From Oxynema aestuarii AP17 (GTDB lineage Bacteria; Cyanobacteriota; Cyanobacteriia; Cyanobacteriales; Laspinemataceae): a stretch of DNA of 64,000 nucleotides. Made by a program: the position numbers and the translations under genes. The notes beneath the pieces were generated by a model that saw nothing but the letters and a program-made list of their open reading frames with translations, did not search any database and was not told the DNA's origin. Where the stretch lies: assembly GCF_012295525.1 (NCBI RefSeq), contig NZ_CP051167.1:1116001-1180000 (forward strand), written 5' to 3'. Of the stretch, positions 15,875 to 37,258 are shown in pieces; the first letter of the stretch is position 1, and the number at the start of each line of letters is the position of its first letter.

Positions 15875-17176
15875 ATGCTGACCATGAACTACACTTACCG
15901 AATCTATCCAGATGCCTTGCAGCAGACTGAACTGCGGTCGTGGCTTGAGACGTGCCGAGGCATATATAACTACGCGTTGCGCGAACTCAAAGACTGGATT
16001 GCTTCGCGTAAGTGTTCGGTAGACCGATGCTCGCTGGAAAAGGAATACATCATTCCCGCCAATGAGCCATTCCCGTCCTACCACCGTCAGCAGAACAACC
16101 TGCCCAAAGCAAAGAAGCAATTCCCGCATCTGGGTAAGGTACATTCTCAGGTGTTGCAGACCACGATTCGCAGACTGCACGATACCTGGGAAGCCTTTAA
16201 GAAACGGGGACATGGATTCCCTCGTTTCAAAAAGTTCGGTCAATTCAAATCCTTTGTGTTTCCCCAGTTCAAGAACAATCCCATCAATGGCTTCACAATC
16301 AAGTTGCCAAAGTTAGGGGCAGTACCCATCAACCTGCATCCCCCCTTCGCCCCCCTTTGAAAGGGGGGCGAAGGGGGGATGCAGGTAAGGGTACTGTCCA
16401 GGGTACGGGGGACGCAATGGTATGTTGTCGTCACCCTTGAATCGGATATATCGGTTCCCGATGTCCCGGTTCATGGTCGGGCGATCGGGATTGACCTGGG
16501 ATTGCAGCGATTCTTGACCGCTTCCGATCGCTCTTTCCAAGAACGCCCTAAGTTTTTCAAGTCGATGCAACGCAAGCTGAAATTGCTGCAACGCAGAGCG
16601 GCACGAAAACAGAAGGGTTCTCAAAATTGGGAGAAAGCACAAGTCGAAGTGGCTAGAATGCACCACCGAATTGCGAACCGTCGTAAAGATTTCCATCTGA
16701 AAACGGCTCATCAGCTTTGCGACCGGGCGCAAACTATCTTTGCAGAAGACCTCAACGTCAAAGGCTTGACGCGAGGAATGCTGCGAAAAGATTGTGTTGA
16801 TGCTGCTTTCGGGCAGTTCTTGTCTCTGACGGAATGGGTGTGCTGGAAGCGTGGGGTCTACTTTGCTAAAGTCAATCCCAACGGCACCAGTCAAACCTGC
16901 CCCAACTGTTTTGCTACGGTGAGCAAAGGGTTGGAAGTCAGAGAGCATCATTGTCCTGAGTGTGGGTATCGAACGCATCGCGATACGCCTTCGGCGTCGC
17001 TACGCGAACGTGCTGCAGCCGAGATGGTTTTGCATCGTGGACTAGAAAACGTAGTAACCCAGGGACTCTGGGGAATGGAAACCGCCTGTCAAGTCGGTCT
17101 GTCGGGGGTCTATGACCTAGATAAGTGGCGTGGGGCCCGAATACCCAATCGTGAGGCTGGGAAGCCCGCGCTGTAA
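15875..17176 (+). pseudogene. tnpB: tnpB interrupted by a hairpin insertion (in-frame stop)
   Basis: Two same-frame segments, 15875-16360 (161 codons) and 16379-17176, make one TnpB broken by a TGA at 16358-16360. The stop lies inside a perfect palindrome at 16332-16386. Core motifs survive: RuvC-I D in AIGIDLGLQRFL, RuvC-II E in IFAEDLN, zinc ribbon CPNC/CPEC. RuvC-III (THRD...AAAEMVLHRG) is split by a 27-bp in-frame insertion near 16983-17011. TnpB is the RNA-guided nuclease of IS200/IS605 elements. Here it is probably inactive unless the downstream part is restarted. Its 3' end runs into the right-end hairpin at 17165. It is related to the copy at 27325-28602. Confidence 0.85.
16320..16396. 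repeat. Long palindromic element inside tnpB
   Basis: The core 16332-16386 is a perfect inverted repeat with 27-nt arms around a single central G; arms are ACCTGCATCCCCCC, then TTCGCCCCCCTTT. Pairing continues outward through CAGTACCC (16320-16327) and GGGTACTG (16389-16396) past a small internal loop. It introduces the stop codon that breaks the gene. A related C/G-rich palindrome sits in another tnpB at 28154-28194. Confidence 0.9.
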
Positions 17177-17451: not shown

Positions 17452-20400
17452 ATGGTTCGAGAACTGGAACGAACACGCCATAATAGCGATTTTCCAGAAA
17501 ACGCCCCTACCGCTAACCCGGTATTTTTCAGAACGTACAGCCGCCGTCGCCAAGATGGCACCCGCGAAACCTGGCAGCAGGTCTGCGATCGCACGATCGC
17601 CGGACTGGGGAAACTCGGCAAGCTTTCCGAGGGCGAACTGAGCCTTTTACATCGGATGCAGGGTCAGTTAAAATCGCTCTCTTCCGGACGATGGCTCTGG
17701 GTGGGAGGCACCGAGTGGATCGAACAGCCACAAAATTTCTCCGGGGCTTATAATTGCTCCTCGACCAATATTTCTGACTGGCGCGCCTTCGGCTTACTCA
17801 TGGACCTCGCCATGATGGGTTGTGGTACGGGCGCCGTCCTCGAACCGCGCTATATCGAGCAGTTGCCGCCGATTCGCAACCGTCTCGACGTCAGAATCGT
17901 GGGAACGGTCGGCACGACCCCGAAAGAAAACCGCCGCGAAGAAACAGAAGTCATCGTAGACGGATCCCGAGTCACGATCGCCGTCGGCGACTCGCGCCAA
18001 GGCTGGGTGAAGTCCTACCAAAGTTTACTCGAACTCTCCAGCGACGATCGCTTTGATGGAGAAATTGACATCTGCGTCGATCTCAATGACATTCGTCCCG
18101 CCGGAGAAACCCTCAAAGGCTTTGGGGGCGTCGCCAATCCGGTGAAGTTGCCGCAATTGTACCAACGCTGTGCGGCCATTTTGAATAAAGCCGTAGGACG
18201 GAAATTAAATTCGGTCGAGTGCTGTTTGTTAATTGATGAAGCAGCAACAACGATCGTAGCCGGCAATATTCGGCGCTGTATCGCTTATGGGGAAAGGGTT
18301 TCAGCGATTTCAGGCATGAAGCCAATCCAAGATATTGCCATCGGCGAACTGGTACTGACTTCTTCTGGACAGTACAAGCCTGTTACGAATAAATTCGTAC
18401 AAGGCGTACAAAATGTCGTCGAGATTCGGACTCGCGAAACTGCGATTCGCTGTACGGCTAACCATCGCGTTGCCGTTTACAATGGCTTGCAGTCCTATAC
18501 TTGGAAGTATGCAGGCGAACTGCAACCGGGCGATCGCCTGATTTCTGTCCCTCACCGGAAAGGAATGCCCTGCTCGACCACTGACTATGCTTGGCTGGTC
18601 GGCTTCTTTATCGGTGACGGTCATGCAGATATCGCTTCTGCAAAACGTCGTAATGGTGGTGGCGGATGCGTCACTTTTGCCTTTTCTCGCGAGCGATTGA
18701 ACGGCCCCCTGGGGCAAAAATGCCTTCGCATTCTCAAAAGCCTGGGTTATACCCCTGCAATTAGTTTTCGCGAGAACCAGTCCTACATTAAAGTTCACCG
18801 CAAAGACTTAGCGGACGAACTCGTTCAGTACAAACAGCCTTGGGAAACTCCCATTATTCCAGAGTTTGTTTGGCTAGGTACTGAAGACATTCGCGGTGCA
18901 TTTCTAGCGGGTTTAGCGGATGCTGATGCCGGGCCGTCGCGGAATGTTTTGTTACATTCGACCAAAATCGAGTTTCTGCGGCAAGTGCAACGTTTGTCCT
19001 TGTCTTTAGGCATTGCAACAACGTTACACGAACGCAGTCCGAAAACGCTTAAAAACCGCGATACAGTTTACGAAGGCTGTCATTGGCTGAAAATTCGCGG
19101 CATTCAATCTCAAGTCAATGCAGTCGCTCTCGTAAATCCGCATATGGGACGCGAGGGATTCCGTATTTGCGGACAGAAGAAAAACGGTTTGAGTTTGCCC
19201 CATCAATTCATTGAAGAAGCCATGACTGCGGGTTGGCGAGCCAAAACCGTTAACAACACTAAGAGCATTATCAACCCGAGCAAAAAGGGCGGATCGATGC
19301 GCGATGCCAATTGGGATACCCTGCTTGCTGAAGGGGTAGTTCATCCTCATTGGCTGCCTTTAGAGGTGCAATTAGTTGTACCCGCCGGACAAGCTGAAAC
19401 CTTCGATATTGAAGTGGAAAGCGATCGCGAATTTATTGCCAGTGGCTTGCTCGTTCACAACTCTGCCGGAATGCGTCAGTTCGACAGCAACGACGAACTG
19501 GCGGGCGTAGCCAAAGAAAACCTCTGGCAACAAACCCCCGAGGGCAACTGGCGGATCGACCCCGAACGCGACGCCTTGCGCATGGCCAATCATACCCGGG
19601 TGTTTCATCGCAAACCCTCTCGGCAAGAATGTATCGACGCCGTCCGCAAGCAGTATTATTCCGGGGAAGGGGCGATTCAATGGGCGCCGGAGGCGATCGC
19701 CCGTGCCAATTGCGACTTACTCGCCGACGATACCCTCAAACGCGACTTCATCGCCGCCTACAGTGAAGGCAACGGCGCGGACTGGTTCCAGAATGCCTTT
19801 CCTAACCTGGACGAATCCGAACGCCAACATCGTCTCGCCCGCTTCGGACTCAACCCGTGTGGTAAGTAATTTTGCCTCACGTTAAACACCGGGGAAAATC
19901 GGTGAACCCTGAGAAGGGAATACCGAGGTAAGCATAAGGGTTAAAACCCTTTGCCACCGTAGAGCGCAGGAGGTGACCCTCTCCCGTTTCTCCTTTCTCC
20001 TTTGGAGATGCTGTAAAAGGTAACGGTCTTTAGAGAATATAACCCTCCCACGAGTCTCCGGCAGCGTCGAACTGCTGAAAATGTGCGCCGAGCTTACTCG
20101 AAATCAAGAGTAAGAACTAAAGGATAAAAAGCCTTTAGGGTAACAAAACTGGAAATTATCGGTTGTGACTTTCACTGCAACTTAAGTGAGATCCATCTCA
20201 ATCAAATCGATCCCCAAGACCACAAAACCCAAGACGACGCCTTCCGAGCTGGGGCGCTCTCCGTCGCGGTACTGCTCAACCACGAGTTTGTAGAACCGCG
20301 TTATCGTTACAGTCGCCAACTCGATCCGATTGTCGGCGTCTCGTTTACCGGACTGTTCGATTTCTTCGTCCACGCTTTCGGTGCCGAATGGTTGCATTGG

Positions 20401-21240
20401 TGGAAAGAAGGGCGCCCGGATACGCCTGTCGGACGGGAGTTTAAACGCCAAGAACGCGAGTATTTATCGCGCTGGAATCGGGTCGTACATGAAACGGTCT
20501 GGGATTACTGCGATCGCCACGGCCTCAAGCGCCCCAATCGTTGCACCACCGTGCAACCCAGTGGCACCAAATCCCTGCTCACTGGCGCTTCTCCCGGCTG
20601 GCATCCTCCCAAAGCCCAACGGTTCGTGCGTCGCATCACCTTCCGCAAATACGACCCCGTGGCGATGGCTTGCATCGATTACGGCTACAACGTGGTACCG
20701 TCTCAATCCGATAAAGACGAAAATGACAACTTGTTAGACGATCCCTTCGACGATCGCTGTACGGAGTGGCTGGTCGAGCTTCCCGTCGAGGTGTCCTGGG
20801 CGAATTTACCGGGTACTGATGGCATTGACGTGTCTAAATTCTCGGCACTGGCACAGTTCGACTTTTACATGCAAGTGCAGCGTTACTGGACGACCCACAA
20901 CACCTCGGCAACGATCGAGTTGACCAACGAAGAAGTCGAACCCCTAGGGAGAAGGATTTACGAAGCGATTCGCGACGATGAAGGTTATATTTCGGCGGCG
21001 CTGCTAGCTCGTTTTGAGGACTTGCAAACCTTCCCGCGCTTGCCGTTCGAACCGATTTCTAAAGAGGTTTACGAGCAACTTAACCGAGAGGTTGTCAAGC
21101 GTCGCAAGGTCGAGGATTTTCATCAAGCCATGAGCTTGTACGATTCCGGTTATTCTGAAGAATCGGGCCCGGCGGGTTGCGACTCGGATAAATGTTTGTT
21201 TTCCGATCCGAAGGATGTAAAAGAGTCGGAAAATTATTAA
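17452..21240 (+). CDS. nrdJ: Class II (adenosylcobalamin) ribonucleotide reductase, with intein and intron
   Basis: Makes deoxyribonucleotides from ribonucleotides using adenosylcobalamin as radical source. Exon 1 is 17452-19863 and exon 2 is 20152-21240 (frame continues at Glu). Motifs: FSGAYNCSSTNI (redox Cys), GNIRR/SAGMRQFDS, active-site NPCG/EIIGCDFHCNLSEIHLNQ, TVQPSGTKSLLTGASPGWHP, and C-terminal CDSDKC for thioredoxin-type re-reduction. An intein (18277-19461, 395 residues) splits GNIRR from SAGMRQ. A 288-nt intron splits the catalytic NPCG from EII. Without both, the protein would be about 771 residues, a usual size. The uninterrupted frame ends at 19869, so calling two separate genes here would be wrong. 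Confidence 0.95.
18277..19461 (+). mobile_element. Intein with LAGLIDADG-type homing endonuclease in nrdJ
   Basis: 395 residues in frame with nrdJ. It begins with Cys (CIAYGERVSAI) and ends VHN followed by extein Ser (SAGMRQ). Block B is seen as CTANHRVAVY. The homing endonuclease has two dodecapeptide-like motifs, LVGFFIGDGHAD and FLAGLADADAG, each with its acidic residue. Block F is ETFDIEVESDREFIASGLLVHN-like, ending His-Asn. All residues for self-splicing are present, so splicing is expected. Inteins at this RNR site are known in cyanobacteria. Confidence 0.95.
19864..20151 (+). other. Group I intron in nrdJ (288 nt, no ORF)
   Basis: The coding sequence for NPCG breaks at 19863 and resumes in frame with EIIGCDFHCN at 20152. 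The 5' exon ends in U and the intron ends in G, the group I rule. P1: exon CGTGTGGT pairs with intron GCCTCACG (19874-19881) with one T-T mismatch and a U-G wobble at the splice site. P10: intron GTAATTTT (19866-19873) pairs over 8 positions with 3' exon GAAATTAT. Inside are further hairpins, e.g. CGGT/ACCG enclosing CCC/GGG near 19900-19925, CTTACTC/GAGTAAG and CTAAAGG/CCTTTAG. I could not place P7 with certainty, so the subgroup is open. Confidence 0.88.
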
Positions 21241-26531: not shown

Positions 26532-27136
26532 AAAACAATCCCTAAAAGGGATTTGAGTGAATTTCAACCCGAAACCGGACTTTTCGGTGCAACCGCAGGC
26601 GATCGAACAAGCCCGTTTCAATCCCTAAAAGGGATTTGAGTGAATTTCAACAGATGATTACTGTGAATGAAAGTGATTCAAAATATCTAGAGTTTCAATC
26701 CCTAAAAGGGATTTGAGTGAATTTCAAGCTTAAAAATCACCTATTCCCATCCTTTTCTGGGGTTCCCGTTTCAATCCCTAAAAGGGATTTGAGTGAATTT
26801 CAACGGGTTGTGGTGCGCCAACTGCCAGTCCTGTTGCTGTTTCAATCCCTAAAAGGGATTTGAGTGAATTTCAACGTCTCCTGTCTCGGCATAGTTGCCG
26901 AAGCTCGGCGTTTCAATCCCTAAAAGGGATTTGAGTGAATTTCAACAAAAAATCGCACGCTCCCCCTGGAATAGCCATTAGTTTCAATCCCTAAAAGGGA
27001 TTTGAGTGAATTTCAACAATTCCGTTGGCGCCCGATCCGCTAATGAGCCAGGTTTCAATCCCTAAAAGGGATTTGAGTGAATTTCAACTTGCTTGGCGGT
27101 ATTGATGGTCGCCGTCTTCTTTTTGTTTCAATCCCT
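26532..27136 (-). CRISPR. Subtype I-D CRISPR array, 8 repeats plus a truncated ninth
   Basis: The 37-nt repeat reads GTTTCAATCCCTAAAAGGG, ATTTGAGTGAATTTCAAC on the plus strand. The reverse complement ends ...GGGATTGAAAC, giving the usual ATTGAAAC crRNA handle, so transcription is on the minus strand. Repeats start at 26532, 26615, 26692, 26768, 26839, 26910, 26981 and 27052; a 12-nt stub is at 27125-27136. The copy at 26532 is degenerate (AAAA for GTTT), marking the trailer end. Spacer lengths from trailer: 46, 40, 39, 34, 34, 34, 34, 36. No leader is left at the cas-proximal end: the stub runs directly into a cas2 fragment. Confidence 0.97.
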
Positions 27137-27304
27137 GGGGGACAGCCAATGCGCTCGACGGTACCTTGATTCTTCCCTCGCAAAAAATAAAACAGGATAT
27201 TGTCCGTCTCCGGTCGAATCAACTTCTGCAACCGTTGCCGCAAACGGGCGTACTGCGTATCCGTTAAATCGCACTCGAACACACTGTACTGCATCCACTC
27301 CCCT
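27137..27304 (-). pseudogene. cas2: cas2 remnant, both ends lost
   Basis: Codes in frame for WMQYSVFECDLTDTQY, then RLRQRLQKLIRPETDNILFYF and GTVERIG, the middle and later part of Cas2. The N-terminal strand with the catalytic Asp is missing, cut off by the right end of the tnpB element (27305). At the other side the frame runs straight into the truncated CRISPR repeat, so the native C-terminus is gone as well. It cannot form the Cas1-Cas2 integrase. Confidence 0.88.
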
Positions 27305-27343
27305 TGACATCCTCTCCACGCAAATCAAAGATTATGCGTGGAG
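27305..27343 (-). repeat. Right-end hairpin of the tnpB element in cas2
   Basis: Perfect 9-bp stem, CTCCACGCA (27314-27322) with TGCGTGGAG (27335-27343), loop related to AATCTTTGATT, then GAGGATGTCA on the minus strand. It matches 17165-17204 in loop and tail but not in stem sequence. The tnpB stop codon is inside the hairpin. Confidence 0.75.
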
Positions 27344-28602
27344 ATTCCTTGGGTCGCCCCAAAGATTTCCTGCTTCACAGCCAGCCAACTAGAATCAGTG
27401 ACCCGATCCCCCGTCGCCTCGACTCCACAGGCATTTTTGATTCCCCGTTGCCCACGGGTACAGATAACTTGTCCACTGGCTACGTCACGGGGTTTGATTG
27501 ACCCGCAGTTATGGCAGTAATGAATCCGGGTTGAGAGGTCTTTGCGTACCTCAGCCCCACAATCCGGGCATTCCTGAGACGTACCACGAGCATCCACCTT
27601 GCCGTAATATACATCCCGCTTCCAGCACACCCACGGCAAGATTTGATTGACAAACTGCCCCAACCCAGCGTCCAGGGTGTGCTTACCCAGCATCCCTTTT
27701 GCCATGATGCGGAAGTCCAAATCTTCCACAAATATCATCCCTGCACTATCGCAGAGGCGGTGAGCCAACTTGAAGTGCCAGTCCTTTCGCGTATCGGCAA
27801 TGCGTTGATGAACTCTCGCAATCTTCCTCTGGAGCTTCAGCCAGTTAGCAGACCCCTTCTGCTTGTTCTTCAATCTGCGTTGCAGCAATTTCAGCTTGCG
27901 GTGTAGATTATCGAAAAAGCGGGGTCGCTTGACCTGTTCCCCATCGGAAGTCGAAAGAAAATACTCCAGACCAACATCAATCCCAACCGGATGCCCGTGA
28001 GGGGCAACATCGGGAATATCAACATCAGCCTGAAGGCTCAACATGACAAAATAGCCCGATGCCTTACGAACAATTCGAGCTTGTTTTGCCTGAAATAAAT
28101 TAGGAATTTTCCGTGACCACCGAACCCGAACCCATCCCAGTTGCGACAGCTTAATCCCCCCTTCGCCCCCCTTCCCAAGGGGGGTTGGGGGGATACAGTT
28201 TTTGAGCATCTGGGGGAAGACGAACGACCGCATCCGGTTGGGTTTTTTAAACCGTGGAAGACCAGACCGCTTCAATCGCCAGGACTCCCAGGAGGCTTCC
28301 AGTTTTTGGAGAACCTGTTGAAGTACCTGAGCGTTAACAGTCTTTAATCGGGGGTATTTCGACTTCGCCACCGTTAGCCGCTTGGACTGAACGTGATAGC
28401 TGGGAAATGGCTCGTCCGCTGGCAAGATAAACTCCTGCCGGATCGAACAGGCATTTACTGGGGACTTGCGGGAACTCAGCCAATCCTTACGTTCCCGCAG
28501 GGCAAAGTTCCAGACATCGCGACACACATCTAAAATGTGTTCGATCTCACAAACCTGCTCCGCCGTTGGTTCTAGCTTGAATTCCCAGGTCATGTTCAGC
28601 AT
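27325..28602 (-). CDS. tnpB: TnpB, RNA-guided nuclease of an IS200/IS605-type element
   Basis: 425 residues and full length. RuvC-I D in PVGIDVGLEYFLS, RuvC-II E in IFVEDLDFR, zinc ribbon CPDC/CHNC, RuvC-III D in KPRDVASGQ. N-terminal motif WEFKLEPTAEQVCEIEHIL. No tnpA is next to it. TnpB cleaves DNA guided by an RNA from the element's right end, which favours element retention. It sits inside the cas locus between the cas1 and cas2 remnants, on the cas strand. A 41-bp palindrome (28154-28194) is inserted in frame, adding about 14 residues (IPPTPLGKGGEGG). This is usual for such hairpins in surface loops and probably tolerated. Confidence 0.92.
   Translation of the reverse strand: MLNMTWEFKLEPTAEQVCEIEHILDVCRDVWNFALRERKDWLSSRKSPVNACSIRQEFILPADEPFPSYHVQSKRLTVAKSKYPRLKTVNAQVLQQVLQKLEASWESWRLKRSGLPRFKKPNRMRSFVFPQMLKNCIPPTPLGKGGEGGIKLSQLGWVRVRWSRKIPNLFQAKQARIVRKASGYFVMLSLQADVDIPDVAPHGHPVGIDVGLEYFLSTSDGEQVKRPRFFDNLHRKLKLLQRRLKNKQKGSANWLKLQRKIARVHQRIADTRKDWHFKLAHRLCDSAGMIFVEDLDFRIMAKGMLGKHTLDAGLGQFVNQILPWVCWKRDVYYGKVDARGTSQECPDCGAEVRKDLSTRIHYCHNCGSIKPRDVASGQVICTRGQRGIKNACGVEATGDRVTDSSWLAVKQEIFGATQGISTHNL
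28154..28194. repeat. C/G-rich palindrome inserted in frame in tnpB
   Basis: ATCCCCCCTTCGCCCCCCTT, CCC centre, AAGGGGGGTTGGGGGGAT. Same family as 16332-16386 but at another position of the protein (after FPQMLKNC rather than after VPINLH). Confidence 0.85.
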
Positions 28603-28663
28603 GAAACTATCTTAGCTTAGAAAATAAATATTTGTTCCCTAGGCTTAAGCGAACAACTCCCTC

Positions 28664-28716
28664 CCGTCGCTTCACCACCCCCCAAGCCTTCGGCTATGGG
28701 CGGAGTACTGCGACGG
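28664..28716 (-). repeat. Leftover IS right-end hairpin next to cas1 remnant
   Basis: CCGTCGC and GCGACGG form a 7-bp stem around a long loop; on the minus strand it is followed by GAGGGAGTTG, like the GGGAGG-type tails of the other right ends. It abuts the cas1 remnant, suggesting that a second element hit cas1. Confidence 0.55.
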
Positions 28717-28810
28717 ATCTTGATAGGCGATCGCGCTGATATTTCACGCTCAACCGCTCGTCTACTTTCCCCAAAAACGCATCTTCTTGGGTAATATATA
28801 CCGTTCCCAT
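28694..28810 (-). pseudogene. cas1: cas1 remnant, N-terminal ~26 residues
   Basis: The ATG at 28810, with GAGGA upstream, opens a frame starting MGTVYITQEDAFLGKVDERL, then SVKYQ. This is the typical Cas1 N-terminus of I-D/III loci. Homology stops there and the frame ends 12 codons later in IS-derived sequence. The integrase active site (Glu, His, Glu/Asp) is entirely missing. It follows cas4 in the usual cas4-cas1-cas2 order. Confidence 0.85.
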
Positions 28811-28912: not shown

Positions 28913-29512
28913 TCACCCTATCTCTTGATATCGCTCGACTTTCGACGCGGCTTGAGGCAAACAGCCGCCGTACAAACTGCACCCGCGACAGCTGGTCGTA
29001 TAGTATAGGGCTGGGGGCATTTCTCCGGTTTGCAACATCTGACGAACGGACTCGATGGTGGCGATGGTTTCTCGACGCAATTTGTCATCGAGGACGATGT
29101 CCTGTCGTTGGTGAGATTGCAAGGAATAAACGTAACCTGTGGGAATCGAACGGCCCGTTAATTCTTCTAAACATAACGCCTGGCCGCAGACTTGTAAGGC
29201 GTCGTTTTCCCAGGGATTTTTCCGCCCTCGTTTGTATTCTACGGGGTAGATTTCTCCGGCTTTGGATTCGACGAGATCGGCTTTTCCGACTAAGCCGTAT
29301 TTTTGCGATTTGAGCCAGATCGATCGCACTTGCCAGGTGTCTTCGCGAAATCCTTCTCCGAGGGTATGGACGCGATCGTGTAGCGTACTTCCTTCAACGG
29401 TGTAAGCGTTTTCAACAAACTCTCCCGCACAAAACATTCGCCAACACCGATGAGGACAGTAAGTGAAATGGTTCAGCGAGGCGATCGCCACTTCTGTTAA
29501 CATTTCTGTCAT
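28913..29512 (-). CDS. cas4: CRISPR-associated exonuclease Cas4
   Basis: 199 residues. RecB-type nuclease: H45, D79 in VGKADLVE, E92 and K94 in PVEYKRG. Iron-sulphur cysteines are C19 or C23 near the N-terminus and C175, C178, C184 (SCRGCSLYGGC). Cas4 trims prespacers and selects PAMs for Cas1-Cas2. GGAGA lies 8 nt before the ATG. Since cas1 and cas2 are broken just downstream, this intact Cas4 has no local integrase partner. It lies 25 bp after cas6. Confidence 0.95.
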   Translation of the reverse strand: MTEMLTEVAIASLNHFTYCPHRCWRMFCAGEFVENAYTVEGSTLHDRVHTLGEGFREDTWQVRSIWLKSQKYGLVGKADLVESKAGEIYPVEYKRGRKNPWENDALQVCGQALCLEELTGRSIPTGYVYSLQSHQRQDIVLDDKLRRETIATIESVRQMLQTGEMPPALYYTTSCRGCSLYGGCLPQAASKVERYQEIG

Positions 29513-29537
29513 GGTTCGTTCTCCTATTTTTTAGGGA

Positions 29538-30395
29538 TTATCGATCCATTTTTCGCGCCATTCCCATCCCCATCGTGGTTTTCCGTCCGATACCTGAATA
29601 TAAGGCGTAGTCTGCCAAGGTATTCAAGGTTTGAATTGTGGCGGTAGAGACATCGCCTAAAATGCGGTAGTCGATACTTCCTACGGCTCCAATAAATTTG
29701 CCCGACTTCCCTTTTTTACGAAATTCAAATTCGGCGATTTCTGTGTTAAGCTTAAAGAAGCATGGAAAAATGGATTCTGTTGAAAATTCGGGCAGTTCGA
29801 TAGTGCTGTATTTCTTCCAAGAATTCAACAAGCTTTTAAAAACAGATTCCGGAGAGGGAAGAGCGGTATCGTATTTTTGCTGTCGAAAGGCTACGGGTGT
29901 GGAAAACTGAAACGATATTCGACGGTTGCGATCGGACGCGTTTTCGTAAAGTTCGGCATAAGATGCTGCGTTCGCCCAAGGTTGCGTTGATTGTGGAGTT
30001 CCGAGAATACTGGTAACGTGCAAATTGGCTGCGCCTAAATGCCAAGGTTGTCCTGAATTTAAGTTCAACCAAAGATGGCTGAGTTTTCTGAAAAGGCTGT
30101 CGTCGAGGAGAGAAACACGCCACCAACAGGGGGTTTCGGGTTGGATGGGATAGCGATGTTGGAATTGCAAAATCGGGGGAACGGAGGCGCGTTGGTTTCG
30201 GCGAGGATGGCGCACTACTTGCAACGGTGAAAGGGCGAAGGCTTTTTCGGTTTTGGTTTCGTGGAGGTGAGTCGCCAGTTGCGAGTCTACGGCGTTGACG
30301 GCGGTGAGAAATAGGGCGTGAAGATGTCTTCCGGTGGCGTATTCGGGATAGATGGGGTTTTCGGGAAGGAAGTTGAAAACAAGACTGTGAGGCAT
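29538..30395 (-). CDS. cas6: CRISPR repeat endoribonuclease Cas6
   Basis: 285 residues. Two RAMP-like halves; the C-terminal Gly-rich loop is GIGRKTTMGMGMAR, the family signature. Cuts the pre-crRNA 8 nt upstream of the repeat end, leaving the AUUGAAAC handle seen in this array. The catalytic His is probably in the N-terminal region (GRHLHALFL). It starts 3 bp after the cas3' stop, which implies coupled translation. Confidence 0.92.
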   Translation of the reverse strand: MPHSLVFNFLPENPIYPEYATGRHLHALFLTAVNAVDSQLATHLHETKTEKAFALSPLQVVRHPRRNQRASVPPILQFQHRYPIQPETPCWWRVSLLDDSLFRKLSHLWLNLNSGQPWHLGAANLHVTSILGTPQSTQPWANAASYAELYENASDRNRRISFQFSTPVAFRQQKYDTALPSPESVFKSLLNSWKKYSTIELPEFSTESIFPCFFKLNTEIAEFEFRKKGKSGKFIGAVGSIDYRILGDVSTATIQTLNTLADYALYSGIGRKTTMGMGMARKMDR

Positions 30396-30398
30396 GGT

Positions 30399-32699
30399 TT
30401 AAACGCACCAAAATTCTTCGTTGTCGGGACATTTTAAGGCAAATCCTGCGGTTGCGATCGCTAAAATTCCTGAAAGACTCGGAAAGAAAGTATATTTTTC
30501 TTCTCGCCCAAAATTGTCGCAGACTGTGATGGGATAACAGTCTAATCCTTGTTTTTTGAGTTTAAAAATTGCCCAGCGATTATTTAGATGTTCTTTAACG
30601 ATGACACCGGGTAAGAGGGGTGGGGTGAGTTCGGCAATGATTGCAGTCGATCGCATCATTTCACCAATACCTCGCTGGATTTGACAGTTTTGAAAAGCAT
30701 AGAGTTTCGACAGTTGAGTGTTGGCAAATTCATCGAGATCGATATTGAGATTGGTAAGATTCAGAGAAAAACTTAGATTGTAGGGCTGTTTGGCGCGTTC
30801 GGTGACGAGAATGCGATCGCCGTCGGAAACAAATTCGTAAAATCGCAATAGATGCAGAGGATCGAGATTCGTTTCGCCACAATTATCGAGAAGAAATCCT
30901 TTTGGATCTTCAATTTTGACGTTTTCAAATAAGCTATCACGGAAGCGAAATAAGGGAGCGTAGCTGATTTGTAAAATCCTGGCATAGTGTTTGAGTTTTT
31001 CGGTGTAATATCGCTGGCTTAAAATCTCTTGTTCTAGTTGTTCGATCGCAACTCGTCCAGATTTCACATCTTCCCAGTCTTCAGAACAATAAGCCTTGAG
31101 GAAACTCTTGACGCAATTTTGACCGCCTTTGATATACTTCCAATCTTTTGGGATTTTCTCAATTTTGGTTTTGGCAATGTTTTCTGCTCCTTGTAAAATC
31201 TTCATTCGTTGTCGATACTCTTTCCAAGGTCGGTTTCCACCGAGTACACTTTGCAAGGTTTGATAGAGTTGAGAAATGAGGTGTTCTCCTGGGGTATTGA
31301 TGAGACTGGTTTCGAGTTCTAGTAACGGACGAGCAATTTCTAAAAAGGCTTCGGAACGCCAGTAAATATTGAGAAAGGGTCGTTGCATACACTCCAAGCT
31401 TTCCAGGGTTTTTTGGAGTGCTTCTCGTCCGCCAGAACCGTCGAGATTTTGCAGTCCTTGTTGCCAAACTTCTTGGGGTAAATAGACGATCGCATGAGAA
31501 GAAATATCGGTTTTAACTTTCCCTAAAACCCGTCCCACTCGTCCGATTCGCTGCCAAAATGAGAAGCGATCGCGCGAGGAGAAAATTAACCAGTCGAGGT
31601 TTTGGCGATCGCGTTCGATTTCACGCTCGAAGTTGAATCCGACATCAACGGTACTGGTGGCGAGAATGACTTGTTTTTGAGCCGCTTTGGGACGGTCTTC
31701 TTTTGGTGTATCTCCGGTAATGCGTCCGCAATAATGTTCGTAACCGCGATCGCGCAATTCTGTTGAAATGGCATTGAGGGTATCTTTGGAGTCCAAAATC
31801 ACTGCGCCGTTGTCGTCGGGTCGATTTTGAATGCGATCGCAAACTTCTCCGACGATTTCTCGAATAATTTCGTCTTTTTCGGGATACGATCGCACTTCGA
31901 GATTGACTGCAGTTTGCGAGGGAATGAGATGTCCAGTTTTCCCATTCCCGTCAATTAGAGCGACCCGAACGCCGTCTGTTTCTAGCGTTTTTAAGGCTTC
32001 TTCACAAGCGGGTTCGGGAGTGGCTGTGAGCAAGACGACTTTACGGTTATTTTGGAAATAGCCAAAAACGTGAGAAACGGCTAAATAAAATAACAAACTC
32101 ACCAATTGTTTGGCATCGTACAGATGAAACTCATCGAAAATGACGGTCGCGAAACTTTTGTAAAAAATGCTAGCGATGTTGGAGCGATCGCGCCGATTGT
32201 ATTGAAAAAAAGCAGCGTAGTAAAAAATATCGGGATTCGTCACCAGTAAAACAGGACGACCGCCGCCACATTCAGGAAATAGCGTTGAAGGATCTTGCAG
32301 AACGTTGTAGATTTTTTCACCCGCACGCCGTCCGACGCGATCGTTTGGCCAAGAATTCACGTGCTTGGCTGAAGCCGCTTTCACAACGTGGGGTAAACCT
32401 GCTGCTTTGACAAATTTTTCGGCGGCGATCGTTTGTTGTTCGACGAGGGCATTCGTAGGAGCAACGTAAACCACATTTCGCGTCGGATTTTCCAAAACCA
32501 CACTGAATCCGGCTTTCGTTTTTCCCGTTCCGGTTGCAGAGAGGTCGAGAATTAAATCGTGGTCTTTGGCTGCGTTATAAACATCCACTTGATGCTGTAA
32601 AGCCTTGCCTCCAAAGACTTTTTTGAGAGCGTCGGGTAAATCGGTTTCAGTACAAGCGGCAATTTGGGCGGGTTCGAGGGTGATGTGGAGATTATTCAC
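30399..32699 (-). CDS. cas3: Type I-D CRISPR helicase Cas3'
   Basis: 766 residues, GTG start with AGGAGG 8 nt upstream. Superfamily 2 helicase: Walker A ATGTGKT (55-61), Walker B DEFH (189-192), motif III LLTATPE, motif VI QRIGRVGR. There is no HD nuclease domain; in subtype I-D that is carried by Cas10d. It unwinds target DNA after Cascade binding. Its start overlaps the end of csc1 by 8 bp. Confidence 0.95.
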   Translation of the reverse strand: MNNLHITLEPAQIAACTETDLPDALKKVFGGKALQHQVDVYNAAKDHDLILDLSATGTGKTKAGFSVVLENPTRNVVYVAPTNALVEQQTIAAEKFVKAAGLPHVVKAASAKHVNSWPNDRVGRRAGEKIYNVLQDPSTLFPECGGGRPVLLVTNPDIFYYAAFFQYNRRDRSNIASIFYKSFATVIFDEFHLYDAKQLVSLLFYLAVSHVFGYFQNNRKVVLLTATPEPACEEALKTLETDGVRVALIDGNGKTGHLIPSQTAVNLEVRSYPEKDEIIREIVGEVCDRIQNRPDDNGAVILDSKDTLNAISTELRDRGYEHYCGRITGDTPKEDRPKAAQKQVILATSTVDVGFNFEREIERDRQNLDWLIFSSRDRFSFWQRIGRVGRVLGKVKTDISSHAIVYLPQEVWQQGLQNLDGSGGREALQKTLESLECMQRPFLNIYWRSEAFLEIARPLLELETSLINTPGEHLISQLYQTLQSVLGGNRPWKEYRQRMKILQGAENIAKTKIEKIPKDWKYIKGGQNCVKSFLKAYCSEDWEDVKSGRVAIEQLEQEILSQRYYTEKLKHYARILQISYAPLFRFRDSLFENVKIEDPKGFLLDNCGETNLDPLHLLRFYEFVSDGDRILVTERAKQPYNLSFSLNLTNLNIDLDEFANTQLSKLYAFQNCQIQRGIGEMMRSTAIIAELTPPLLPGVIVKEHLNNRWAIFKLKKQGLDCYPITVCDNFGREEKYTFFPSLSGILAIATAGFALKCPDNEEFWCV

Positions 32700-33474
32700 G
32701 GGAGTTTCCTCCTAAAAATTCTAGATTTGCAGGAATTAGGAAGTTTCCAATTTGCCATGCTTCACCATGAAATTGAAGGTTTTTCAACAGAGAGGCTGGC
32801 GGAATGGCAATTAAATCGAACGCGAACGGTTCGAGGTCGGGTGGCAAATCGGCTGAGTTGAGATAGGTGTTGCAACGATAGGTATCGGCGGGCAATTGTC
32901 GAACGGGTAATGCTTCCCCCACGTCAACGCGCACTTTGCTCGTAAATTTGCCCACGCGGATGTATTCAGGAAGTTCGCCTTCGCCAAAAACGAGGGTTTG
33001 AAAGCGATTTCCGCGATCGATAATTCGCAATCGTCCGGTTTGGGGAAAGTTACTCGGACGGTAAGTGTTGGGTTTTTTTCCAGTTCGTTTGAGCGGTAAA
33101 TCTTCCCTGGCGGTGGCGACGCGATTGTTCGTCATGGCGTACCAGTAGGCATCGGAGAGGGCGTTAAACCGCTCAAAACGATAGGAGGGACTGTTTTCAA
33201 CTGGCCAGGCGGGGAGAATGTAATGTTGTCCCGCAAGCGGCGTGAGGTCTTCTCGATACCGAGGTCGTCCGGTGTCTTTCCCCGTCAGGCGATAGGGCGC
33301 CCTCGCCCAACCGAGGGCGTAGGCGAGGGCGTAGTTTCCGATCGCTCCTTCGGTATAGTAGGTGTCGGAGAGTTCTCGGGAGGCGAAAAACACCGGTTCA
33401 GCACACCACAATTCGACGAGGCGGGCGGTGGTAAAGGTCGGGGAATCGCTTAGGTTGAGTTCTGATTGTGGCAT
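32692..33474 (-). CDS. csc1: Type I-D Cascade subunit Cas5 (Csc1)
   Basis: 260 residues, RAMP-fold protein that caps the 5' handle of the crRNA. Csc1-like blocks: VELWCAEPVFFASRELSDTY, GNYALAYALGWARAPYRLTG, GEGELPEYIRVGKFTSKVRV. GAGGA precedes the ATG. 12 bp after csc2 and overlapping cas3' by 8 bp, so these belong to one operon. Confidence 0.92.
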   Translation of the reverse strand: MPQSELNLSDSPTFTTARLVELWCAEPVFFASRELSDTYYTEGAIGNYALAYALGWARAPYRLTGKDTGRPRYREDLTPLAGQHYILPAWPVENSPSYRFERFNALSDAYWYAMTNNRVATAREDLPLKRTGKKPNTYRPSNFPQTGRLRIIDRGNRFQTLVFGEGELPEYIRVGKFTSKVRVDVGEALPVRQLPADTYRCNTYLNSADLPPDLEPFAFDLIAIPPASLLKNLQFHGEAWQIGNFLIPANLEFLGGNSRE

Positions 33475-33486
33475 GAGGTGTTCCTC

Positions 33487-34491
33487 TTATTTGTTTTTGC
33501 GCCCTTTCTTGGTCGATTGTTGTTTGATTTGGCGATAGGGTTGATAGGATTCGTCCAATCGTTTGAGAAAGGTTTCTTGTTCGTCGAGCGACCAATGGCG
33601 ATCGATATCCTCGATGAGTGCGTCGAGTTCTTCGGATGACAGTTGCATGGAAATCCCCCGTTTGTTCGTCCAAGTGTTGATGACAGATTGGGTGGCTTCG
33701 ATGAGAGCGTTTGTGTTTAAGGGATGTTCGAGGGCGACGTTTTCGGCAATGAGGCGATCGTAAACGCCTTGCACGAGTTCGAGGGAACTGGGCAGTTCGG
33801 AAATGCCGCCAAATACGCCGAGAATTTGGTTTTCCATGCGTCCGACTCGGCTGGAAACGGCGCCGTAACGAGTGGTGAGAAGTAGGTTGCCCAAGGCGTA
33901 GCGTAATTCGTCGGCGGTGACGTCTTTTAAGGTGGCGATATCGAGAAAGTGAACGCCGGGTTTGATGTATTCGCTGGTTTTGAGAGCGGTGGAGGCGTTG
34001 CCTTTTTCGTCCCGCATGGTTCCGGTTTCAAATACAGCGTTGATGGTGCGATCGCCAATGAGTTCAGTTGAGGGCAATACGCTAAATGCATCTTCTGTCC
34101 AAATGCGGCTTTTTTGTGCGCCTTCTCCACCCGCTGCAAATCCGTAAAGGAAACAATCGACGCACATTTCACAAGGCGCGTTGGTGTTGAGGGAGCAAGG
34201 TGAATCGCTTTTTGGGGCAGTATAAAGCAACTCGTGATTTCGTAAAAATTCCCGTCCCCGCCGCCGTTCGGGGGCGACTTGTTTGCGTTTGGTCATGACT
34301 AAACGCAGAATCGATTCGGTGTTTTGAACTCCGGCTTGTACGGATTCGCGACACATGGGTTCGCCCGTTCCTTCGGTTCGGAAAATGGTTTCTGATTGGG
34401 TCGTCCGAAGTACGACTACGCCAATAGTTCGACCTTTGGGAAAGTTTTCGTAGTTGGGGGCGAGGAAGGATTGTAATTTCTCGATCGACAT
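33487..34491 (-). CDS. csc2: Type I-D Cascade backbone Cas7 (Csc2)
   Basis: 334 residues from the ATG at 34491, with GGAG 9 nt upstream (a TTG 6 bp earlier is in frame). Csc2 coats the crRNA as the backbone. Recognisable blocks: GRTIGVVVLRTTQSETIFRT, PCEMCVDCFLYGFAAGGEG, RTINAVFETGTMRDEKGNAS, TTRYGAVSSRVGRMENQILG. Four Cys in the CxxC region may hold zinc. The C-terminus is Lys-rich (TKKGRKNK). It lies about 58 bp after cas10d. Confidence 0.95.
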   Translation of the reverse strand: MSIEKLQSFLAPNYENFPKGRTIGVVVLRTTQSETIFRTEGTGEPMCRESVQAGVQNTESILRLVMTKRKQVAPERRRGREFLRNHELLYTAPKSDSPCSLNTNAPCEMCVDCFLYGFAAGGEGAQKSRIWTEDAFSVLPSTELIGDRTINAVFETGTMRDEKGNASTALKTSEYIKPGVHFLDIATLKDVTADELRYALGNLLLTTRYGAVSSRVGRMENQILGVFGGISELPSSLELVQGVYDRLIAENVALEHPLNTNALIEATQSVINTWTNKRGISMQLSSEELDALIEDIDRHWSLDEQETFLKRLDESYQPYRQIKQQSTKKGRKNK

Positions 34492-34549
34492 TTTCAATTT
34501 CTCCGGTATTTTTCGGTGGTGGGTTAAATGAATTCGCGAATTTTAAAGA

Positions 34550-37258
34550 CTATTTCGCTTCAGGTTGAACCTCGGAAGATTCCTCGTTTTTTGCTTTAAG
34601 CTCTTGACGAGCTTCCTGCAAGAAAAAGAGATAGGCGGCTTCGAGGGTTTTGCTGTCGGTCAGCAGACGTTCGGGACGAGAGTTATACACTTCTTCAAAC
34701 AGCTTTTTTAAAACCTCGTAAAACTGTTTGACCTGTTCGTATTTGGTCGCGCCTACCCCATGCTCTCGAATGCGATCGAGCCGGGTGTGATATTGCTGAA
34801 CCAGTGCAGCAAAGACGGTATCCCAGTCCATGTGTGATTTTTTCGATCGCACCGCTTTAATAAATTCAGAAAACGGTTCGGATTGAGCAGTTCGACGAAA
34901 CGAACTTCCGCGAAGTTTTCCGGTTTCGGCAATTTTTGCCGCTTGTTTGAGATAATCGGAAATCCGAGTATGTTCGTCTGACATAAGATTCTCCAGTAAT
35001 TGATGTAATGGCTCTCGAATACGTCGCCAAACGGCTTCTAAATTCGGGTCGTCCTGCTCTCGTAAAACCCAACGCAGTAGAACGTAATACAGATTGAGGG
35101 GGCGAGTGGTAGCACGGGCTAAATCGTAAAGACAATCATCTTTTTTCTGAAGACTAGCAACAGAAATCGCTAGTTCTCCCACGCAACGCAACCGCTCTAA
35201 AACATCCTCGGCGGTGAGTGTTTTTTGACGCTCTTTTTCGGCAAGATGACCGTCTCGAAGATATTGACCGCTTCCCAGCAATGGCTGTAAGGAAGAGGGA
35301 ATTCCTTCGACTTGTCCGAAATCGTTCCAAGTGGGTTTAATTTCTAAGTTGGAACTGAGAATAAAGGGAAATCCCATCTCGAACGATAAACTGAGTTCTA
35401 ATGCCAGTCGTAAAGACTTGAGTAGAGCCACTGAATTATTGACATCTCCCCAAAGAACGGGAATTGTAACGGTGGAATTGACGAAATCCGGACGTTTGGG
35501 AAAGGCAAAGCCGACCACTTTATTAGCTTTAAAGATCGTCTCGTTTTTGCGATACAGTTCCAGTTCGTCAACTGTTACCGTTCCATCTTCGTTGATTTGG
35601 GCAGTCTTTTTCAGGAACTCTCGCCAAATTCGCCGCAGTTCCACATTAGAACCCGAGGGAAGTGCAAAGTGTAAATAAACAGGTTCTTGTTTGACGCTTT
35701 TAGGGAAATTTGCACCCACTGCCATTAACTGATAAGCTAAGGCTGAAAGGGTATCGCCTCGCCGTTTGGGTTCTGCACTCATTCCGCCCGGAAGACGATT
35801 GGAAAATGCCTGAACTTTGGTTTCGGGCGGCATTTTGCTCGAAATCAGTTCTTCAATCTGATTGGATGTGGTTCCTAGCGAACATCGCTTGCGAGGATTA
35901 GCATCAATGTATGCAGTTAATTCCTGAATCCCTGGTAATGGTTTGGTTGTGGGAAAATTGAGCAGTTGTCGAACGGCGTCGATGAGTTCTTGTGAGGCTT
36001 CTACTTCGTCAGTTGTACGAAGTTGGAAGGACTCTTTTAATGCTTCGTAGATGGTGGGCAATCCTCCTGAAACGACTTTGGCGGCGAACAAACCCCGTCC
36101 GTATTGGGGGTTAAAGGGTTCGAGAGCGGTTCGCTGTTCGGGAGAAATTCCAACTTGTTCGGCGATGCGATTCCATGCTTCTTTGGGGTTGATTTCTGCT
36201 TCTCGATAGCTGAGATAGAGAGATTTTAAGCCTTCGGAGATGGCAAATTCTTCGGCATTGGAAACGGGTTGCAATCCGAGTTGTGCGGCGGCGGTGAGGG
36301 CATCTTCTCCGGCGTCGTTACCGTATTTTTCGATGGTTTCGCGAACTTTGTCGGCTTTGTAACTGCTGGCTTTTTTGACGAGTAGTTCGTCAACGGCATC
36401 GAGAGCCGCATCGGGGTTTTGTTGGACGGCTTGCGTGTCGATTTTAATGCCATCTTTGCTGGGTTTGACTAGCTGTTTGACGTTAGAACCGAAGGTACGA
36501 TCGATCTGTTTTTGCCAGTGTCGAGCGATGTCAGGGGCGATGTCTGCTTCGGGAAAGGTTTCGCCGAGGAAAATTTGACCGTTGGGTTCGATCGCCAACG
36601 TCGTTAAACCGCGATCGCACAAGACTTTTTCGCAAGCGGACAACAACAGCGAGGTAAAGTAACCGCGATCTTCTGCTAAACTGATGCGAAACAAACGACA
36701 GGGACGTTGAAGGGCAATGGTGAGTTTATTTTCAACTTTGCGAATTCGTAAGTTGTCGTCAATTCCTAAGTCGAATAAGTCCGCCGCCACCACCATCGCC
36801 GACCAGCGATCGATTTCGGGATCTTCGGGTAAAAATCGCATTCCATCGCTAACGTTGTGGTCTGAATGACGTTCGATAAGGCGACGAACCCGTTCGAGAT
36901 CTGCGTCGTTTTTTACCAAGTCGGCGACATAGGCGCGATCGAGTTGTTCTCGGAGAAAGGTGCGATCGCGTGCCAAGGTTTTGACGTTGCGTCCCTTTTC
37001 GTCAAATTTGTTCAAGTCGTGAACAGCAGTTGCCGCGAGAATTTGCGATCGCTTGTCCTCGGGAACTCCGGCAATTTTGCTGACCGTGAGGACGAACTGA
37101 CAGGCGGAGTCGAGATGTTCGGCAAGACTGCGACCTCGGCGAGTACCGTGTTGAGCGTGTTTGCCGTGGTGTTGGTACAGCTTGGGACGAATTTCGCTGA
37201 AATACCGTTCGTCGAGGGATTTAGGTTGACCTGGAAGCAGGTCGGCCAGGCGAGCCAT
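34550..37258 (-). CDS. cas10d: Type I-D large subunit Cas10d (Csc3) with HD nuclease
   Basis: 902 residues. N-terminal HD nuclease: H48 (AEHLDSAC), H80-D81 (AVHDLNKF), H131 and H134 (ERHSDHNVSDG). In subtype I-D this domain does the DNA cutting and works with Cas3'. A Palm-like region follows, but no GGDD cyclase motif is seen, as expected for Cas10d. The C-terminal part is helical. First gene of the operon; GGGGAGA precedes the ATG. The stretch to the divergent WYL regulator is about 120 bp. Confidence 0.95.
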   Translation of the reverse strand: MARLADLLPGQPKSLDERYFSEIRPKLYQHHGKHAQHGTRRGRSLAEHLDSACQFVLTVSKIAGVPEDKRSQILAATAVHDLNKFDEKGRNVKTLARDRTFLREQLDRAYVADLVKNDADLERVRRLIERHSDHNVSDGMRFLPEDPEIDRWSAMVVAADLFDLGIDDNLRIRKVENKLTIALQRPCRLFRISLAEDRGYFTSLLLSACEKVLCDRGLTTLAIEPNGQIFLGETFPEADIAPDIARHWQKQIDRTFGSNVKQLVKPSKDGIKIDTQAVQQNPDAALDAVDELLVKKASSYKADKVRETIEKYGNDAGEDALTAAAQLGLQPVSNAEEFAISEGLKSLYLSYREAEINPKEAWNRIAEQVGISPEQRTALEPFNPQYGRGLFAAKVVSGGLPTIYEALKESFQLRTTDEVEASQELIDAVRQLLNFPTTKPLPGIQELTAYIDANPRKRCSLGTTSNQIEELISSKMPPETKVQAFSNRLPGGMSAEPKRRGDTLSALAYQLMAVGANFPKSVKQEPVYLHFALPSGSNVELRRIWREFLKKTAQINEDGTVTVDELELYRKNETIFKANKVVGFAFPKRPDFVNSTVTIPVLWGDVNNSVALLKSLRLALELSLSFEMGFPFILSSNLEIKPTWNDFGQVEGIPSSLQPLLGSGQYLRDGHLAEKERQKTLTAEDVLERLRCVGELAISVASLQKKDDCLYDLARATTRPLNLYYVLLRWVLREQDDPNLEAVWRRIREPLHQLLENLMSDEHTRISDYLKQAAKIAETGKLRGSSFRRTAQSEPFSEFIKAVRSKKSHMDWDTVFAALVQQYHTRLDRIREHGVGATKYEQVKQFYEVLKKLFEEVYNSRPERLLTDSKTLEAAYLFFLQEARQELKAKNEESSEVQPEAK

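What the first reader, a model, noticed from the sequence alone, without database searches (positions are those of the whole stretch)
27125..28810. Type I-D CRISPR locus with a destroyed adaptation module
Seen: cas1 stops after ~26 residues, cas2 has lost both ends, and the cas2 remnant reads directly into a 12-nt truncated CRISPR repeat, so the leader is gone too. All interference genes, Cas6 and Cas4 are intact. The locus can probably still interfere but cannot gain spacers on its own, unless another Cas1-Cas2 in the genome helps. The cas2-repeat fusion records a single deletion joint.
Basis: partly seen in the sequence, partly recalled or inferred. Interest (0 to 1): 0.75.

Follow-up and report, generated by a model that had tools for sequence, protein, structure and literature searches.

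The report
Jumping gene wrecked CRISPR memory module
A cyanobacterial CRISPR immune locus can no longer record new infections because a small jumping gene (TnpB type) sits where most of its two memory genes, cas1 and cas2, used to be, and the RNA guide that the element should make happens to match the intact cas2 gene of related bacteria.

Summary
Between the cas1 and cas2 stumps lies a complete 1,419-bp TnpB-only insertion sequence (27304-28722, minus strand; intact 425-aa tnpB). About 20 relatives fix its ends, and three empty sites show that it inserts after 5'-CTAY. It replaces cas1 from codon 29 and cas2 codons 1-25 (about 1.0-1.1 kb). The cas2 flank is a proper insertion site: a relative (G089) keeps intact cas2 reading ..TCCTAT|GGGGAGTGGATGCAG... 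The cas1 flank also reads CTAT and fits conserved Leu28. Best model: IS-mediated deletion between two CTAY sites, most simply two insertions followed by recombination. A separate deletion fused cas2 codon 80 to 12 nt of a repeat and removed the leader (about 270 nt in relatives). Cas10d, Csc2, Csc1, Cas3', Cas6 and Cas4 are full length, so interference may persist, but no promoter was found near the array. Four other intact cas1-cas2 sets exist, serving arrays with different repeats. The predicted TnpB guide equals the cas2 flank: TAM plus 16 nt match intact cas2 in G089 exactly, near matches occur in about 35 further genomes, and the own genome has none. Possible consequence, untested: a gene drive that fixes the broken allele.

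The parts
28724..28810 (-). cas1 N-terminal remnant, residues 1-28 (the last codon CTA overlaps the TAM)
   Evidence: aligns with L127 Cas1 through Leu28
28723..28726 (-). target/transposon-adjacent motif CTAT at the left end of the IS
   Evidence: CTAY at the left end of 29 distinct insertions and present in three empty sites
27304..28722 (-). complete TnpB-only insertion sequence, 1419 bp (starts CAAGATCC, ends GATGTCAA)
   Evidence: ends fixed by relatives in other genomes with unrelated flanks
27325..28602 (-). tnpB, 425 aa; RuvC motifs GIDVG (207), VEDL (292), RDVAS (372); zinc ribbon CPDC/CHNC
27304..27443 (-). predicted reRNA/omegaRNA scaffold at the right end of the IS
   Evidence: 26 of 41 consensus pairs show both-side changes; this copy folds at z = -5.0
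27284..27303 (-). predicted TnpB guide GGGGAGTGGATGCAGTACAG = cas2 codons 26-32
   Evidence: position next to the IS right end; inference from the ISDra2 rule (PMC8612924)
28154..28198 (.). 45-nt G/C-rich palindromic repeat in frame inside tnpB (PPTPLGKGGEGG), about 40 similar copies in the genome
27137..27303 (-). cas2 remnant, codons 26-80 of 90
27125..27136 (-). 12-nt truncated CRISPR repeat fused to cas2
26532..27088 (-). CRISPR array: 8 repeats (CRISPR-DR5; the leader-distal one degenerate), 7 spacers between them plus one between 27088 and the truncated repeat
28913..29512 (-). cas4, intact
29538..30395 (-). cas6, intact
30399..32699 (-). cas3' (I-D helicase), intact
32692..33474 (-). 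csc1/cas5d, intact
33487..34497 (-). csc2/cas7d, intact
34550..37258 (-). cas10d, divergent I-D variant, intact
   Evidence: PADLOC Cas10_Id over residues 6-896, 65-72% aa to four relatives; no NCBIfam or PDB match

Best explanation
A TnpB-only element of the IS200/IS605 (IS1341-like) kind invaded the cas1-cas2 adaptation module of a variant type I-D locus. One end lies at a CTAT in cas1 (codons 28-29), the other at a CTAT in cas2 (codons 24-25, Ser-Tyr). The simplest route is two insertions in the same orientation about 1 kb apart, then recombination between the copies, which deleted the segment and left one IS. A separate deletion joined cas2 codon 80 to the inside of a CRISPR repeat and removed the leader. 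The locus can probably still interfere with the spacers it holds if the array is still transcribed, but it cannot adapt. The TnpB guide RNA, read off the right flank, should address intact cas2 next to its CTAT motif, so TnpB would be expected to cut uninserted chromosome copies or incoming intact cas2 and so help fix and keep the broken allele. Shown: IS ends, TAM, empty sites, target match, remnants, intact effector genes. Inferred: the two-insertion route, TnpB activity, the drive, remaining interference.
For: Left and right ends agree in about 20 relatives with unrelated flanks. CTAY stands beside all 29 distinct left ends and in three empty sites, one of them inferred from the reading frame. 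G089 intact cas2 reads TCCTAT|GGGGAGTGGATGCAG, the exact empty site for the right flank. Window cas1 reads CGC CTA T, in frame with conserved Leu28. Only 6-14 CTAY sites occur per 1.3-1.4 kb of intact cas1-cas2, so a random breakpoint lands just after one about 1% of the time or less. The segment missing relative to intact loci is 995-1130 bp. The same IS right end is 99% identical at five places in G121, so the family was active recently. The reRNA scaffold covaries. The RuvC triad is present. TAM plus 16-nt guide: exact in G089, no match in the own genome even with 2 mismatches.
Against: No relative examined has CTAY at the cas1 site; the cas1 TAM rests on the reading frame and the Leu codon only. 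A single insertion in cas2 followed by a deletion that happened to stop at the TAM is not excluded. The own genome holds no second copy of this IS above 71% identity, so the second copy and the donor are gone or lay elsewhere. tnpB carries a 45-nt in-frame insert that may impair it; activity is unproven.
Confidence: 0.75

Rival explanations
1. Single insertion: the IS entered cas2 at CTAT, and an ordinary deletion later removed cas2 codons 1-24 and most of cas1, ending by chance at the left edge of the TAM.
For: Needs one IS only; the cas2 site is a verified empty site in G089; no CTAY at the cas1 site in relatives.
Against: The deletion would have to end within about one nucleotide of the TAM and also leave a codon (CTA) that fits conserved Leu28 in frame.
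Confidence: 0.2
2. One reading: plain erosion of the adaptation module by one deletion, with no mobile element.
For: The cas2-repeat fusion is a simple deletion joint.
Against: A complete IS with defined ends fills the cas1-cas2 gap.
Confidence: 0.03
3. TnpB has been recruited as a new effector that uses the array, a nascent type V system.
For: tnpB now lies directly upstream of the array on the same strand; [quoted passage not shown]
Against: The scaffold next to tnpB is the ordinary IS right end shared with copies that have no array; the repeats are I-D type (RF01318), with Cas6 and the whole I-D effector retained.
Confidence: 0.03
4. The array still gains spacers with Cas1-Cas2 supplied in trans, as in Flavobacterium columnare, where a type VI-B array uses II-C Cas1 (PMC8092290).
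For: Four intact cas1-cas2 sets elsewhere, one in a second, canonical I-D locus.
Against: No leader left; this repeat is found only here; the other arrays have different repeats.
Confidence: 0.05
5. Assembly or sequencing error.
For: Reads were not available to check it.
Against: One complete contig; the IS ends and target motif follow the family's rule exactly, which a misjoin would not give.
Confidence: 0.02

Closest known systems
Type I-D CRISPR-Cas, variant with a divergent Cas10d (PADLOC Cas10_Id)
   Same: Full cas10d-csc2-csc1-cas3'-cas6-cas4 operon and an array in the usual order
   Different: cas1 and cas2 are stumps, the leader is gone, and a tnpB IS lies between the stumps
IS200/IS605-family TnpB-only elements (IS1341-like); ISDra2 TnpB as the studied model
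   Same: TnpB with RuvC triad and zinc ribbon, structured right-end RNA, insertion 3' of a short motif without duplication, right end ..TCAA
   Different: TAM here is CTAY (ISDra2: TTGAT); no tnpA in the element; this copy replaces about 1 kb of host DNA
TnpB gene drive of insertion sequences in plasmids (PMC11870625)
   Same: The guide records the insertion site and would cut uninserted copies
   Different: Here the site is a chromosomal CRISPR adaptation gene and the activity is untested
CRISPR loci without adaptation modules (e.g. VI-B of F. columnare, PMC8092290; type VII, III-G, PMC12669027)
   Same: Interference genes without cas1-cas2
   Different: Here the loss is recent and the cause is visible; the stumps are 90-97% identical in protein to intact relatives

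Membership tests
Type I-D CRISPR-Cas | Csc1, Csc2 and I-D helicase Cas3' | tested here: met
   TIGR03159, TIGR03157 and TIGR03158 all above cut-off
Type I-D CRISPR-Cas | Cas10d large subunit | tested here: met
   PADLOC Cas10_Id, 1528 bits over residues 6-896; NCBIfam TIGR03174 not matched, so a divergent variant
Type I-D CRISPR-Cas | Functional cas4-cas1-cas2 and leader-array | tested here: not met
   Only cas4 intact; cas1 and cas2 are stumps and the leader is absent. It is a degenerate I-D locus
IS200/IS605-family TnpB element (TnpB-only, IS1341-like) | TnpB with D-E-D RuvC motif and zinc ribbon | tested here: met
   (NF040570 guided_TnpB)
IS200/IS605-family TnpB element (TnpB-only, IS1341-like) | Insertion 3' of a conserved short motif, no target duplication | tested here: met
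   CTAY, three empty sites
IS200/IS605-family TnpB element (TnpB-only, IS1341-like) | Right-end guide RNA scaffold | tested here: met
   RNA expression itself not testable here
Complete IS605 element | tnpA (Y1/HUH) in the element | tested here: not met
   Only tnpB in 1419 bp; five Y1_Tnp genes lie elsewhere in the genome
Type V CRISPR-Cas (TnpB recruited by an array) | Guide RNA made from the array repeat | tested here: not met
   By sequence only: repeats match CRISPR-DR5; the scaffold is the IS right end
TnpB gene drive | RNA-guided cutting of the uninserted allele | not testable with these tools
   Only the sequence prerequisites were shown

The most novel reading that the evidence does not exclude
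The TnpB element is an active chromosomal gene drive against CRISPR adaptation: its guide matches a conserved segment of type I-D cas2 (YG[QE]WMQ), so it spreads the cas1-cas2-null allele through all chromosome copies of a polyploid cyanobacterium and destroys incoming intact I-D adaptation modules, locking the lineage into a fixed spacer memory.
Probability: 0.2. Interest if true: 0.75.

Novelty: new member of a known kind. Interest (0 to 1): 0.5.

Why it matters
Many CRISPR loci lack adaptation genes, and the cause is rarely visible. Here it can be read to the base: a TnpB element, its target motif, and an intact relative that still has the empty site. TnpB carries an RNA address copied from its flank, so the same event may have created a nuclease aimed at cas2. 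That makes a concrete question testable: can a selfish RNA-guided nuclease actively keep CRISPR adaptation off and block its repair by gene transfer?

Tried and rejected
At first the conserved CTAYC was taken as the IS left end with no target motif; empty sites showed CTAY to be the target motif. Target-site duplication: not seen except one CTGCC repeat beside one Baaleninema copy, explained by the reading frame with the TAM. Cas10d as a non-Cas10 protein: rejected, PADLOC gives a full-length match. Spacer targets: nothing significant in phages (best E 0.7). A resemblance of the spacer next to the joint to an inverted cas2 end was judged chance: one 10-base match with an indel. The same IS in other cas1-cas2 loci: none among the TnpB loci fetched (L156 has a CRISPR array and another cas2 about 2 kb from its tnpB, not inside it). 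Promoter scan near the array: no excess over shuffles.

Full report
What is in the sequence. On the minus strand the order is cas10d, csc2, csc1, cas3', cas6, cas4, a cas1 stump, tnpB, a cas2 stump, and a CRISPR array. The cas1 stump keeps residues 1-28 and the cas2 stump codons 26-80 of 90. The cas2 stump runs directly into the last 12 nt of a repeat (AGGGATTGAAAC on the minus strand), with at most 1 nt shared at the joint.

The intact state. Thirteen type I-D loci among relatives carry recognisable intact cas1 and cas2. The closest by sequence are L127 (genome G121: cas1 stump 92% aa, cas2 87% nt), L129 (G089) and L085 (G049). They have 14 to about 130 bp between cas1 and cas2, and about 270 nt of leader between the cas2 stop and the first repeat. 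Relative to five intact loci, 995-1130 bp are missing between the window's cas1 and cas2 stumps.

The insertion sequence. DNA searches found relatives of the tnpB region at 77-83% identity in other genomes. Their similarity to the window starts and stops at the same two points although their flanks are unrelated. Baaleninema simplex PCC 7105 has more than 15 copies. The right end is GATGTCAA| throughout. At the left, 29 distinct insertions begin CTA[CT]C. Three empty sites show that CTAY belongs to the target: G137 is contiguous CTAC|AGGAGT where two sister species carry the IS, G089 and G021 read CTAT at the site occupied in G162 and G105, and one Baaleninema site regains its reading frame only with CTAT restored. 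So the element is 27304-28722 (1,419 bp), preceded by the TAM CTAT (28723-28726), and inserts without duplication. Five right ends 99% identical to this one exist in G121, mostly at contig breaks as expected of a multicopy element. The own genome has no second copy; its nearest tnpB relatives are four copies at 71%. Five Y1 transposase genes lie elsewhere in the genome and could act in trans.

How the lesion arose. The right flank of the IS is GGGGAGTGGATGCAG (cas2 Gly26-Glu-Trp-Met-Gln). In G089 the intact cas2 reads TCC TAT|GGG GAG TGG ATG CAG, so CTAT stands exactly where the family's target motif should be. That flank is a proper insertion site. At the left flank the window reads CGC GAT CGC CTA T|, in frame with RDRL of L127 Cas1, so the CTAT there can be cas1's own codons 28-29. 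No relative examined has CTAY at that place, so this half is inferred. With only 6-14 CTAY sites in 1.3-1.4 kb, a random breakpoint would land directly behind one about 1% of the time or less. Two IS insertions followed by recombination, or a direct TAM-to-TAM replacement, therefore explain the junctions better than one insertion plus a chance deletion. I put this at roughly four to one. The cas2-leader-repeat deletion is a second event; its order relative to the first is unknown.

What the locus can still do. Cas10d is not recognised by NCBIfam or PDB sequence searches, but PADLOC matches it full length as a Cas10_Id variant, and four relatives share 65-72% identity. Csc2, Csc1, Cas3', Cas6 and Cas4 align end to end. 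Seven repeats are identical or nearly so, and one leader-distal repeat is degenerate. Interference is therefore plausible. The promoter normally expected in the leader is gone, and no promoter-like site stands out between tnpB and the array, so crRNA would depend on read-through from the cas operon or tnpB (inference). Adaptation in cis is impossible. In trans it is unlikely: four other intact cas1-cas2 sets exist, one in a canonical I-D locus at 1.04 Mb, but their arrays use different repeats, this repeat occurs nowhere else, and there is no leader.

The guide. TnpB proteins use an RNA from the right end of the element whose last nucleotides are copied from the flank (ISDra2, PMC8612924). The right 140 nt of this family form a conserved structure in which 26 of 41 pairs show changes on both sides, and the window copy folds 5 SD better than shuffles. 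Its guide would be GGGGAGTGGATGCAGTACAG. TAM plus the first 16 nt occur exactly in the intact cas2 of G089; with up to two mismatches 43 of 391 genomes match, most of them reading like cas2 YG[QE]WMQ, against about 10 for the reversed control; the own genome has none. The RuvC motifs and zinc ribbon are present. A 45-nt G/C-rich palindrome is inserted in frame in tnpB (28154-28198), so activity is open. TnpB is reported to act as a gene drive for IS elements in multicopy plasmids (PMC11870625). The same logic in a multicopy chromosome would fix the broken cas allele and cut incoming intact cas2. This is a prediction, not a result; that cyanobacteria of this kind are polyploid is general knowledge, not tested here.

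Known or new. IS disruption of cas genes and loss of adaptation modules are known kinds of event; the 2025 classification describes subtypes without adaptation modules and many TnpB-CRISPR associations (PMC12669027). My literature searches found no description of a TnpB element whose guide addresses a CRISPR adaptation gene, but most subscription papers are not in the library. I score it as a new member of a known kind with a testable twist.

Noticed in passing
window 28154-28198 and 16323-16393: A G/C-rich palindromic repeat sits inside two different tnpB genes of the window at about the same loop (in frame in one; at the break between two ORFs in the other). The genome has about 40 similar copies, many a few hundred bp from another tnpB segment; a Baaleninema tnpB (L136) also has such an in-frame insert there.
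   Followed up: partly
window 17452-21240: Class II ribonucleotide reductase gene with a LAGLIDADG intein and, directly after NPCG, a roughly 250-nt intron-like gap (about 19862-20130) before EIIGCDFHCNLSE; no Rfam intron match at E 0.1.
   Followed up: partly
L127, L129 versus window 28913-37258: The window's cas6-cas4-cas1-cas2 module is closest to loci whose effector genes are canonical I-D (csc2 only 32-36% identical): effector and adaptation modules have been swapped.
   Followed up: partly
L088 and L091 (genomes G008, G004): Two related I-D loci show no cas4, cas1, cas2 or array within about 10 kb downstream of cas6: independent loss or relocation.
   Followed up: no
L078, L253 (own genome 1034500-1050000): A second, complete canonical type I-D locus with 72 repeats lies about 100 kb from the degenerate one.
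   Followed up: partly
L080 (own genome 4262000-4280000): A locus with a 679-aa open frame holding a C-terminal Cas1, a second Cas1-like gene, cas2 and three arrays; probably a reverse transcriptase-Cas1 type III module (fusion not tested).
   Followed up: no
window 27089-27124: The spacer nearest the joint weakly resembles the reverse complement of a cas2 3' end (10-nt match with an indel); probably chance.
   Followed up: partly
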